Below, piece by piece: positions 1-2,126 of a stretch of DNA of 62,349 nucleotides. How positions within the stretch are numbered: the first letter of the stretch is position 1; each line of letters begins with the position of its first letter. Location of the stretch: positions 1 to 62,349 of the forward strand of contig CACENB010000004.1 of assembly GCA_902561015.1 (NCBI GenBank), read 5' to 3'. The translations under genes and the position numbers were made by a program. A model generated the notes under the pieces. The model ran no database searches, was not told the DNA's origin, and was given only the letters and a program-made list of their open reading frames with translations. The stretch is from an uncultured Pelagibacteraceae bacterium (GTDB taxonomy: Bacteria > Pseudomonadota > Alphaproteobacteria > Pelagibacterales > Pelagibacteraceae).

Positions 1-358
1 TAATTCAAATAAATCTATTTTATTCGTTAAAAAAACGATAAATTATATAAATAAAGCAATAAAATACTTTAATAAAAGAATTGATAATCCTAAATATTTA
101 ATTTGGAGTAATAATTTTAATAATCTTGATAAATATTTTGATACTAAAAAATTTACCTTCGTAATTAATGATAAAGATAAAATTTTGACTGATTTTTTTC
201 TACTTACTCAATGCAAGTATTTTATTGTTGGTCCATCAACTTTTCACTGGTGGGGAGCCTGGTTATCAAACTTTGAGGACAAGGTGTGTGTTAGGCCTAA
301 AAATTTAAACCCTTCTAATAATAGGGATTTTTGGCCAGAAAAATGGATAATTATTTAA
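1..358 (+). CDS. Glycosyltransferase family 11 (fucosyltransferase-like), 3' end only
   Basis: The reading frame is open from the left window edge (codons begin at base 2) and stops at 356-358, so only the C-terminal 118 residues are seen. They contain the family-11 (alpha-1,2-fucosyltransferase) tail pattern: a Leu/Cys-rich stretch LLTQCKYFIVG, then STFHWWGAWLS, then a proline-containing end WPEKWIII. In the family the Ser-Thr-Phe-x-Trp-Trp-x-Ala-Trp-Leu block belongs to the nucleotide-sugar binding half. The likely role is adding a deoxyhexose or similar sugar to a surface glycan. The 3' end overlaps the convergent recombinase gene by 4 bases. Donor and acceptor cannot be told from this fragment. 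Confidence 0.75.
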   Translation, partial: NSNKSILFVKKTINYINKAIKYFNKRIDNPKYLIWSNNFNNLDKYFDTKKFTFVINDKDKILTDFFLLTQCKYFIVGPSTFHWWGAWLSNFEDKVCVRPKNLNPSNNRDFWPEKWIII

Positions 359-1308
359 ATTTTTATTTTACTTAATGCATTATTTTTAAATATATTAGTT
401 TCTTTAATATATCTTCTAACCATTTGAGTTGTTTTATGACCTGTCATAGCCATTATACTTCTTTCGTTGGCCCCTGACTCTGCTGCAACAGTTGCAAAAC
501 CTGATCGCAAGCTATGACCAGCAAAATCTTTATTTTCTATACCTGCTAACTTTAGATATTCTTTCATTAATAAAACTACAGATTGGTCCGTTAATCTCTT
601 TTCTGTTAAGGATAAACCTTTAGAGAATCTTCTAAAGATAGGTCCAGATTTAATTTTAGAAATTTCCAACCATTTTTTAAGATTAATCACTGGGCAATAA
701 TTATCTTTAGTAAAGTAGGGTAGTCCTTTAATCATCCCTTCACCGAATTGATCTGTTTTTGATCTTCTAATAGTAATTTTGAGACCTTCAGGCACAAATT
801 CTAAATCATCATAGTCGATTGAAATAAGTTCAGTTCGTCTGAAACCACCTCCAAAGCCTACTAGGATAATTGTTTTATCTCTTAACTTCTTGATATCGTC
901 TATGTTTTTCTCATCTATTGCATTAATTATTGATTTTAAATGATTGATTAATATGGGTTTTTTAGCTTTTTGAATACTTCCTTTTATCCTTTTTATCCCC
1001 ATTAAATTCTCAACAATAATTGGGTGTTTTGTGTCTAAATAATACCCTTTAAGTTTATGCACCATGCTTATGGACACTAATCTTCTTCTTAAAGTGCTGA
1101 TTTTTGAATTTTTAGAAAGATTGGTTAGGTATAAAGACACTATTTTTGGCTCTGATGGTAGTGAACTTAAACCATGTTTCGCACAAAAAGCTCCAAAGTC
1201 TTTAAAGTCTGATTTATATGCTCTTAAAGTGTTTTTTGCCTTAGAGCTTTTGAGATTATTTAAAGTTGCCTCATGAAGCGATTTTAGGTCTGTGGTCAGT
1301 TCATTCAT
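355..1308 (-). CDS. Tyrosine recombinase / phage-type integrase
   Basis: A 317-residue protein with the two-domain layout of XerC/D-like integrases. An N-terminal SAM-like core-binding domain (about 10-95, with the TLRAYKSDF signature) is followed by a catalytic domain. The catalytic set is complete by eye: Arg157 in FRRTEL, Lys184 in SKTD, His265 and Arg268 in HSLRSG, His291 in GHKTT, and the nucleophile Tyr300 in RRYI. It should cut and rejoin DNA through a 3'-phosphotyrosine. It is not an obvious XerC or XerD by context: it sits between a surface glycosyltransferase and a structured RNA, at what looks like the edge of an accessory region. An inverted repeat lies just upstream of its start (1320-1338). 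No partner excisionase is visible. Confidence 0.92.
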   Translation of the reverse strand: MNELTTDLKSLHEATLNNLKSSKAKNTLRAYKSDFKDFGAFCAKHGLSSLPSEPKIVSLYLTNLSKNSKISTLRRRLVSISMVHKLKGYYLDTKHPIIVENLMGIKRIKGSIQKAKKPILINHLKSIINAIDEKNIDDIKKLRDKTIILVGFGGGFRRTELISIDYDDLEFVPEGLKITIRRSKTDQFGEGMIKGLPYFTKDNYCPVINLKKWLEISKIKSGPIFRRFSKGLSLTEKRLTDQSVVLLMKEYLKLAGIENKDFAGHSLRSGFATVAAESGANERSIMAMTGHKTTQMVRRYIKETNIFKNNALSKIKI

Positions 1309-1319
1309 ATAATTACTAT

Positions 1320-1338
1320 TGATAACAATTAATTATCA
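1320..1338. promoter_or_regulatory. Inverted repeat upstream of the recombinase gene
   Basis: The 19-base element TGATAACAATTAATTATCA has 6-base arms (TGATAA/TTATCA) around a 7-base centre, 11 bases before the recombinase start codon. Its left 11 bases, TGATAACAATT, recur as a direct repeat at 1620-1630. It may be an operator or a recombinase arm site; this is inference from position and symmetry only. Confidence 0.3.
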
Positions 1339-1353
1339 TTAGTAATATATCAA

Positions 1354-1563: not shown

Positions 1564-1619
1564 AAGTTATCCCCGAAATTCACAGAAAAATCATTTAATT
1601 ATAAAAAACAACTAATTAG

Positions 1620-1630
1620 TGATAACAATT
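1620..1630 (+). repeat. Second copy of TGATAACAATT
   Basis: An exact 11-base direct repeat of the left part of the element at 1320-1338, 300 bases away and in the same orientation. The pair brackets the small membrane protein gene. It could be paired recombinase binding sites or chance in AT-rich DNA. Confidence 0.3.
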
Positions 1631-1639
1631 TAAATTTCA

Positions 1640-1847
1640 GTCTGATAAGGTAAATTTAACTTAAGAGGCAACTCTTAACTGGCCAGCCAGAGAAAGGCCG
1701 AGAGGTTTAAGTCTGGAGGGCAGAAAACCCTGTAAAGCAGCGCTAAACATACAGGGTGGTCGGTTCGGCGGTAGCGCATAAAACGACGAACCATAAAATT
1801 CTGATCTTTGCACCCTAAAAAGTGTAAAGAATCAGGGTTTTTTTTTT
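1640..1847 (+). ncRNA. Unidentified structured RNA with a pseudoknot and terminator
   Basis: This stretch is visibly richer in G and C than its surroundings and folds by eye. A 7-bp stem 1661-1667/1672-1678 is capped by a GCAA tetraloop. GGCC at 1681-1684 can pair with 1696-1699, or CCAGA 1687-1691 with TCTGG 1712-1716. A perfect 7-bp stem ACCCTGT/ACAGGGT (1727-1733/1751-1757) has a loop whose GCGCTA (1740-1745) complements TAGCGC at 1772-1777, making a pseudoknot. GGTTCG/CGAACC (1762-1767/1787-1792) forms a further stem. An intrinsic terminator follows. A weak promoter candidate lies upstream (TTCACA 1579-1584, TATAAA 1600-1605), so the 5' end is uncertain. Conserved motifs of tmRNA, RNase P RNA, SRP RNA, TPP, cobalamin and SAM riboswitches were looked for and not seen. 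It may be a free RNA or a leader of the next gene. Confidence 0.6.
1801..1847 (+). terminator. Rho-independent terminator of the structured RNA
   Basis: CTGAT-CTTTGCAC (1801-1813) pairs with GTGTAAAG-A-ATCAG (1822-1835), a 13-bp stem with one bulged A and one G-U pair, followed by GG and ten consecutive T (1838-1847). The T run touches the ATG of the next gene. It is one of the few convincing intrinsic terminators in this window. Confidence 0.85.
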
Positions 1848-2126
1848 ATGAGATCCCTACTTGGAACAAAATTTCAATTAAGAGTTTGGAAATATTTAAT
1901 TACTATTCCTAAAGGCAGCGTGAAAACATATAAACAAGTAGCTATTGCCATTAAAAACCCTAAAGCAGCCCGTGCAGTCGCAAATGCTTGTGCTAAAAAC
2001 CCATATGCTCCAAAAATACCCTGTCATAGAGTGATTAGATCTGATGGAGCTCTTGGAGGTTATTCTGGAAGAGGTGGAATCAGGCAAAAGCTTAAATTAC
2101 TTAGATCTGAAAAAGTATCTATTTAG
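1848..2126 (+). CDS. ogt: Single-domain methylated-DNA--protein-cysteine methyltransferase
   Basis: A 92-residue protein that is only the C-terminal DNA-binding/active-site domain of the O6-alkylguanine-DNA alkyltransferase family. The PCHRV motif is intact, with acceptor Cys59, so it is not the Trp-containing alkyltransferase-like (ATL) form. The helix with Arg42 (ARAVANACAKNP) matches the family's arginine finger, and GALGGYSGR resembles the substrate-binding loop. The usual N-terminal domain (about 70-80 residues) is absent. It should remove O6-alkyl groups from guanine in one suicidal transfer. The ATG directly follows the T run of the terminator at 1801-1847, leaving no room for a Shine-Dalgarno site. 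Expression therefore needs read-through, a promoter inside the RNA, or a leaderless start. Confidence 0.85.
   Translation: MRSLLGTKFQLRVWKYLITIPKGSVKTYKQVAIAIKNPKAARAVANACAKNPYAPKIPCHRVIRSDGALGGYSGRGGIRQKLKLLRSEKVSI

What the first reader, a model, noticed from the sequence alone, without database searches (positions are those of the whole stretch)
1579..1850. Pseudoknotted RNA with terminator that runs into an alkyltransferase start codon
A GCAA-capped stem, a perfect ACCCTGT/ACAGGGT hairpin whose loop pairs with TAGCGC downstream, a GGTTCG/CGAACC stem and a strong intrinsic terminator lie in order before the ATG of a DNA-repair gene. The T run of the terminator touches the ATG, leaving no room for a Shine-Dalgarno site. 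This looks either like an independent small RNA or like a transcription-attenuation leader for ogt. I could not match it to tmRNA, RNase P, SRP, TPP, cobalamin or SAM RNA motifs. The pairings are seen in the sequence; the function is inference.
Basis: partly seen in the sequence, partly recalled or inferred. Interest (0 to 1): 0.72.

Follow-up and report, generated by a model that had tools for sequence, protein, structure and literature searches.

The report
Free-standing IMES-2 RNA of SAR11
This stretch is a copy of IMES-2, an already catalogued marine-bacterial RNA family whose job is unknown; because relatives carry it in different genomic neighbourhoods together with its own predicted promoter and 3' hairpin, it likely works as a free-standing folded RNA and not as a switch for the DNA-repair gene beside it.

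Summary
The stems, the loop-loop pseudoknot, the terminator-like hairpin and the T run touching the ogt ATG are in the sequence. Window 1654-1794 (+) matches Rfam RF02035 (IMES-2) at 152.3 bits (gathering score 54.7), so the RNA is already known. On 79 distinct relatives all seven helices contain two-sided changes; the pseudoknot GCGCUA/UAGCGC has 12 such cells in 3 of its 6 pairs. The ogt-leader reading fails: ogt follows in 69 of 69 loci of the window's genus but 0 of 31 loci of five other genera, where the RNA sits after mnmA or elsewhere. What stays with the RNA is its upstream region (two boxes, an extended -10-like motif) and a 3' hairpin. One match per genome occurs in 200 of 397 genomes of the order; close relatives lack it at the same ogt locus. 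Best reading: a free-standing accessory structured RNA, probably acting as a folded, protein-bound molecule (inferred). Side finding: 1313-1347, beside an Xer-like recombinase gene, is a near-palindrome close to the GC-skew terminus in 4 of 4 genomes tested, a likely dif site in bacteria reported to lack dif/Xer.

The parts
1567..1584 (+). Upstream box A, TTATCCCCG-AAATTCACA: two 9-mers that resemble DnaA boxes
   Evidence: In the window. In most relatives 73-87 bases before the RNA core (1-3 mismatches in 31 of 31 non-g1 regions, 0-3 in 64 of 67 g1 regions). Bound protein unknown.
1609..1626 (+). Upstream box B, CAACTAATTAGTGATAAC
   Evidence: relatives 41-46 bases before the core. Likely regulator site (inference).
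1643..1651 (+). Extended -10-like motif TGATAAGGT; predicted start near 1657-1660
   Evidence: TGNTWNNNT in 84 of 98 distinct upstream regions, 81 of them 10-12 bases before the core; 13% in shuffles. Start not mapped.
1654..1794 (+). IMES-2 RNA core (RF02035)
   Evidence: 152.3 bits, gathering 54.7, model 1-141/141
1661..1678 (+). P1, 7 bp, GCAA tetraloop
   Evidence: 100% of cells paired, 4 of 7 pairs with two-sided changes
1679..1723 (+). P2, bulged helix with internal loop and inner hairpin capped by GAGA
   Evidence: Outer helix: 9 of 11 pairs with two-sided changes, one of them unpaired in 44 of 79; inner helix 2 of 4
1727..1757 (+). P3, 8-bp hairpin whose loop holds GCGCTA (1740-1745)
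   Evidence: 8 of 8 pairs with two-sided changes
1762..1792 (+). P4, hairpin whose loop holds TAGCGC (1772-1777)
   Evidence: 5 of 9 pairs with two-sided changes; one position is not a standard pair in any of the 79 (G-A in the window)
1740..1777 (+). Loop-loop pseudoknot GCGCTA (1740-1745) with TAGCGC (1772-1777)
   Evidence: 96.8% of cells paired; 12 two-sided cells in 3 pairs; variants GTGCTA/TAGCAC, GTACTA/TAGTAC, GCACTA/TAGTGC
1801..1847 (+). Predicted intrinsic terminator: stem 1801-1813/1822-1835, T run 1838-1847
   Evidence: Sequence, fold; a 3' hairpin follows the RNA in each genus, read by eye
1848..2126 (+). ogt-like gene, 92 aa (PF01035, TIGR00589): neighbour, not part of the RNA unit

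Best explanation
Window 1654-1794 is a member of the Rfam family IMES-2 (RF02035), likely transcribed as a free-standing RNA of about 190 nt from a predicted promoter at 1643-1651 to a predicted intrinsic terminator at 1801-1847, and it would act in trans as a folded, probably protein-bound RNA rather than as a leader of ogt. Shown: family membership, four hairpins and a loop-loop pseudoknot that covary, upstream boxes that stay with the RNA in unrelated neighbourhoods, one match per genome, and absence at the same ogt locus in close relatives. Inferred: transcription ends, regulated expression through boxes A and B, and action as a ribonucleoprotein-type regulator; the last rests on the conservation of short unpaired A/G-rich pieces and on the lack of any conserved unpaired stretch longer than 4 nt that could serve as an antisense seed.
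For: Rfam match 152.3 bits. Covariation: 94.5% of 3538 cells paired, 31 of 45 pairs and 456 cells with two-sided changes, against at most 94 cells in any slid control and 0 of 500 shuffles. Pseudoknot alone: 12 two-sided cells, 0 of 500 shuffles as high; pairs with two-sided change 3, 5 of 500 as high. Context: ogt in 69 of 69 g1 loci, 0 of 31 others; mnmA before and a convergent gene behind in the g5, g6, g9 loci listed (mnmA confirmed for the g6 locus L037). Upstream boxes kept across loci. Extended -10 in 84 of 98. 200 of 397 genomes, 75 of 151 near-complete ones, one match each; my own model gave the same totals. Same-locus absence in 18 of 18 IMES-2-negative g1 genomes in which ogt was found, of 20 searched.
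Against: No transcript was seen here; promoter and terminator are predictions, and the consensus scan listed neither. In 17 of 19 g5 loci no run of four T follows the 3' hairpin. The short form of box B alone does not beat shuffles in the other genera (median 2 mismatches, reached by 22% of shuffles), and the box consensus was drawn from the same sequences. For the pseudoknot, the number of further pair types is not unusual (83 of 500 shuffles as high). Lack of an antisense seed is only indirect evidence for protein binding. In genus g1 the link with ogt is complete, so a side effect on ogt by terminator read-through is not excluded.
Confidence: 0.72

Rival explanations
1. A transcription-attenuation leader (riboswitch-like) that controls ogt: the folded RNA decides whether the terminator at 1801-1847 forms and ogt is transcribed.
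For: The T run touches or nearly touches the ogt start in many g1 loci, and ogt follows in 69 of 69 of them.
Against: 0 of 31 loci in g2, g5, g6, g8, g9 have ogt within 350-450 bases behind the RNA; in 8 of 9 such loci listed the next gene is convergent. ogt is present without IMES-2 in 18 of 20 IMES-2-negative g1 genomes searched. Alternative (anti-terminator) pairings were not tested.
Confidence: 0.06
2. A base-pairing (antisense) small RNA that uses exposed loop sequence to bind target mRNAs.
For: Size, own predicted promoter and terminator, and patchy presence are usual for trans-acting small RNAs (general knowledge).
Against: With the pseudoknot formed, the longest run of unpaired columns at least 90% conserved is 4 nt; mean identity is 87% in unpaired and 80% in paired columns.
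Confidence: 0.14
3. A stand-in for 6S RNA that binds RNA polymerase; no 6S RNA was detected in these genomes.
For: RF00013: 0 of 28 genomes at E<=1, while 5 of 14 control genomes rang (4 over the cut-off), Caulobacter among them.
Against: IMES-2-negative relatives lack a detectable 6S as well, so there is no either-or pattern; the fold is four compact hairpins with a pseudoknot, not the long open-bubble hairpin of 6S (recalled).
Confidence: 0.06
4. A piece of a mobile element or phage.
For: Several different neighbourhoods, patchy presence, an integrase-like gene next door in g1.
Against: No blastn match in 50,697 phage and 72,556 plasmid records (near relatives of the window's genome may be left out there); the 10 viral-contig pattern hits carry no match to the family; one match per genome; the integrase-like gene is also found beside ogt in IMES-2-negative genomes.
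Confidence: 0.05

Closest known systems
IMES-2 RNA motif (Rfam RF02035; described by Weinberg et al. 2009, recalled, paper not held)
   Same: Full-length covariance-model match, 152.3 bits; same hairpins.
   Different: Nothing separates this copy from the family. The upstream boxes, 3' hairpin, same-locus absence and differing neighbourhoods are described here; whether any of this, or the pseudoknot, is already in print I could not check in the original paper.
IMES-1 (RF02034)
   Same: Marine structured RNA of unknown function from the same report (recalled).
   Different: No match above cut-off in 40 genomes searched, one weak match below it.
6S RNA (RF00013)
   Same: Free-standing bacterial RNA of similar length (recalled).
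   Different: No match in 28 genomes; different fold (recalled).
raiA-motif RNA ModT and the ornate RNAs GOLLD, ROOL and OLE
   Same: Structured bacterial RNAs; GOLLD, ROOL and OLE form homo-oligomers (start of the abstract of PMC12286853; ModT: start of the abstract of PMC11706538; both in the listing).
   Different: No sequence relation shown; at gathering scores the window holds only IMES-2 and a tRNA.

Membership tests
IMES-2 (RF02035) | Sequence and structure score above the curators' cut-off | tested here: met
   152.3 bits against 54.7, positions 1-141 of 141
IMES-2 (RF02035) | Consensus helices kept by compensatory changes | tested here: met
   31 of 45 pairs with two-sided changes on 79 sequences
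IMES-2 (RF02035) | Taxonomic range of the family (marine SAR11-type bacteria, recalled) | tested here: met
   200 of 397 genomes of the window's order; in a class sample 3 of 385, all three in the window's family.
Riboswitch or attenuation leader of ogt | Lies upstream of the same gene across lineages | tested here: not met
   69 of 69 in g1, 0 of 31 elsewhere
Riboswitch or attenuation leader of ogt | Mutually exclusive anti-terminator fold | not tested
   Only the minimum-energy and consensus folds were examined
6S RNA | Match to RF00013 | tested here: not met
   0 of 28 genomes at E<=1, G000 included; no 6S match in the window
Antisense small RNA | Conserved exposed seed of about 7 nt or more | tested here: not met
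   Longest conserved unpaired run in the core is 4 nt; the 3' hairpin was not included
RNA homo-oligomer (GOLLD/ROOL or phi29 pRNA type) | Loop-loop pairing between molecules | not testable with these tools
   The pairing covaries, but cis and trans cannot be told apart from sequence

The most novel reading that the evidence does not exclude
IMES-2 is an accessory RNA machine of SAR11 that assembles as a homo-oligomer: hairpins P3 and P4 stand only four bases apart, so their covarying loops pair between molecules (P3 of one with P4 of the next) and build a dimer or ring, whose supply is set by a dedicated promoter with tandem DnaA-like boxes.
Probability: 0.1. Interest if true: 0.75.

Novelty: already known. 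Interest (0 to 1): 0.37.

Why it matters
I know of no established job for IMES-2. These results narrow it: it is not a cis-acting leader across its range, it is dispensable enough to be missing at the same locus in close relatives, and its own upstream region stays with it in different neighbourhoods. That gives matched natural strain pairs with and without the RNA, a defined upstream region to test, and a loop-loop contact to mutate. The neighbouring dif-like site, if confirmed, would correct a published statement that Pelagibacter ubique has no dif/Xer system.

Tried and rejected
Attenuation leader for ogt: rejected by context. 6S substitute: no either-or pattern. IMES-1 as a replacement in IMES-2-negative genomes: no match over cut-off in 40 genomes, one weak match below it, in an IMES-2-positive genome (G052). 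A diverged IMES-2 in the negatives: a model from the 79 sequences gave the same total, 200 of 397 (one genome, G189, then had a second weak match). Phage or plasmid origin; the ten viral pattern hits carry no IMES-2. Genome-collection scan: one hit, in a Lachnospiraceae contig, with no IMES-2 match by Rfam; that collection may leave out near relatives. The resemblance of box A to DnaA boxes led me to ask whether IMES-2 marks the replication origin: it does not in the two genomes tested (in G015 it lies near the skew terminus, in G001 between the two), and TTATNCACA with one mismatch is no commoner than chance in the window. A regulon for box A or B: box A gave 35 hits in 15 genomes against 46 for the reversed-pattern control; box B gave 9 hits against 4, of which 3 lie at IMES-2 and the 6 others, read, looked like chance. 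No second place with both boxes appeared, but at these thresholds both were recovered at only 2 of the 9 IMES-2 loci in the set (G015, G017), so this is weak evidence of specificity. Literature: the one held paper with the term IMES-2 is a giant-squid genome paper, which mentions it once as possible contamination from marine sequence (PMC6962438, passage read); searches listed none about it (listings only; one search showed 20 of 35). Meyer 2009 (PMC2704228, section 5 part 1 and passages) names no IMES-2 and no ogt among P. ubique HTCC1062 intergenic regions.

Full report
What is there. The window holds, in order on the + strand, two upstream boxes (1567-1584 and 1609-1626), an extended -10-like motif (1643-1651), four hairpins (P1 1661-1678, P2 1679-1723, P3 1727-1757, P4 1762-1792), a terminator-like hairpin with ten T (1801-1847) and the ATG of an ogt-like gene at 1848. 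The stretch 1654-1846 folds much better than its shuffles (z -5.73). The simple consensus scan reported neither the terminator nor a + strand promoter here, so those two rest on the alignment and on reading the sequence.

What it is. Rfam's covariance models give one answer: RF02035, IMES-2, 152.3 bits against a gathering score of 54.7, the whole model matched. The RNA is therefore known. In the held library the only paper with the term IMES-2 is a giant-squid genome paper that mentions it once as possible contamination from marine sequence; other searches listed nothing about it. The original report, Weinberg et al. 2009, is recalled; under the DOI I recalled it was not held.

Structure. I fetched 101 of the 200 matches, chosen for score and diversity and not at random, and dropped one (L060) because a contig end cuts it. 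The other 100 gave 79 distinct cores, aligned by MAFFT without structure. All seven helices contain pairs with two-sided changes: 94.5% of 3538 cells paired, 31 of 45 pairs and 456 cells with changes on both sides; slid controls gave at most 94 such cells, and 0 of 500 shuffles reached the observed values. One pair of P2 is unpaired in 44 of 79, and one position of P4 is never a standard pair. The pseudoknot alone, GCGCUA with UAGCGC, is 96.8% paired with 12 double-changed cells in three pairs (0 of 500 shuffles as high); its number of further pair types is unremarkable (83 of 500), and 7 sequences lack the first pair and 7 the last. Natural variants include GUGCUA/UAGCAC, GUACUA/UAGUAC and GCACUA/UAGUGC.

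Not a leader. ogt stands behind the RNA in 69 of 69 loci of the window's genus and within 350-450 bases of it in 0 of 31 loci of five other genera. In the g5, g6 and g9 loci whose genes I listed the RNA follows a gene that looks like mnmA (confirmed for the g6 locus L037, 416.8 bits against a cut-off of 284) and faces a convergent membrane-protein-like gene; in g2 it follows a nuclease-like gene and again faces a convergent gene; in g8 the next gene runs the same way but is not ogt. Yet the region upstream of the RNA keeps a similar layout: box A mostly 73-87 bases and box B 41-46 bases before the core. In the 31 non-g1 regions the best box A match has 1-3 mismatches, where shuffles average 6.1; long box B has 0-4 against 5.6; short box B alone is not distinguishable from shuffles there. 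Two g1 regions have no good box A (6 mismatches). The consensus came from the same sequences, so these comparisons are descriptive. TGNTWNNNT occurs in 84 of 98 distinct regions, 13% in shuffles. So the unit that stays together is upstream boxes, RNA and 3' hairpin, which is what a free-standing gene would look like.

Distribution. IMES-2 has one match per genome at E<=0.001 in 200 of 397 genomes of the order, 75 of 151 of the near-complete ones; a model of my own from the 79 sequences gave the same totals. By my hand count of the list, 53 of the 397 belong to the second family f2; the 200 matching genomes listed are all of f1. In a class-wide sample 3 of 385 genomes match, all three from the window's family. 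Of 20 IMES-2-negative genomes of the same genus, 18 have a findable ogt, and in 18 of 18 the preceding gene appears to run up to or overlap ogt with no room for the RNA (read by eye). On a quick tree of the neighbouring recombinase plus ogt from 64 same-genus rows (46 of the 69 positive loci, 18 negatives) and 2 outgroup rows, presence/absence needs at least 9 changes; well-supported branches force 3 (absence) to 5 (presence). These neighbours may recombine, so the count is rough, but the RNA has been gained or lost more than once.

How it most likely works. Shown: a conserved, compact, covarying fold; an upstream region that stays with it; accessory distribution. Inferred: transcription from about 1657 to 1847, regulation through boxes A and B, action in trans. 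With the pseudoknot formed, the longest conserved unpaired run in the core is 4 nt, and unpaired columns are more conserved (87%) than paired ones (80%). That pattern fits a folded RNA that binds a protein or another structured partner better than an antisense RNA. The ligand or partner is unknown. A 6S-like role is not favoured, although no 6S RNA was found in 28 of these genomes.

Side finding at 1313-1347. TTACTATTGATAACAATTAATTATCATTAGTAATA lies directly upstream of the tyrosine recombinase gene 355-1308 (-), which hits Phage_integrase (PF00589) and resembles XerD, XerC and XerS models far below their cut-offs. With up to 3 mismatches the site occurs once in 13 of 15 genomes and in 206 of 397 (96 of 151 near-complete ones; none of the 53 of family f2), with no hit for the reversed control in the rows shown; in 13 of 13 loci the recombinase gene is adjacent. 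In 4 of 4 complete genomes with the site, sampled at 60-70 kb steps, it lies within about 35 kb of the GC-skew terminus of the best two-arc split (site/terminus in kb: G015 1338/1305, G007 471/460, G003 675/700, G020 160/180). Lesser splits of G003 put the terminus at 640 or at 880-940 kb. G001, of the same genus as G007, has no site at this stringency. Carnoy and Roten 2009 (PMC2731167, passages read) state that Pelagibacter ubique has no dif/Xer system; Kono 2011 does not mention Pelagibacter in its main text; a search found no other paper on it (listing of 2). A single-recombinase system with its site beside the gene, as XerS is described in the abstract of Carnoy and Roten, would fit. That the site is only the recombinase gene's own operator is not excluded, but would not explain its place at the terminus. 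In genus g1 the IMES-2 unit sits a few hundred bases from this site, in the other genera read it does not, so I see no functional link.

Verdict. Observation confirmed, identity already known, leader reading not supported, free-standing RNA supported. The open question, its partner, is better posed but not answered.

Noticed in passing
window 1313-1347 with recombinase gene 355-1308 (-): A near-invariant 35-bp near-palindrome, found once in 13 of 15 genomes and present in 206 of 397, beside an Xer-like recombinase gene in 13 of 13 loci and near the GC-skew terminus in 4 of 4 genomes tested: likely a dif site, although P. ubique is reported to lack dif/Xer (PMC2731167).
   Followed up: partly
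28 genomes of the order, G000 included: No 6S RNA (RF00013) at E<=1, while 5 of 14 control genomes rang: these bacteria lack it or have one too diverged for the model.
   Followed up: partly
window 1567-1584 and 1609-1626: Boxes upstream of IMES-2 recur at IMES-2 loci in different neighbourhoods; no second place with both was found in 15 genomes, but the search was insensitive. The bound regulator is unknown.
   Followed up: partly
window, frame ending at 1563 (+), ATG at 1390: A 57-aa open frame (likely membrane protein) between recombinase and IMES-2; scanned as 1381-1563 it has no Pfam hit. In some IMES-2-negative relatives similar small frames run directly into ogt.
   Followed up: no
P. 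ubique HTCC1062 626974-627168 (table in PMC2704228): A conserved, relatively G+C-rich intergenic region between recA and a protease gene, 1168 metagenome hits, without an assigned RNA in that table.
   Followed up: no
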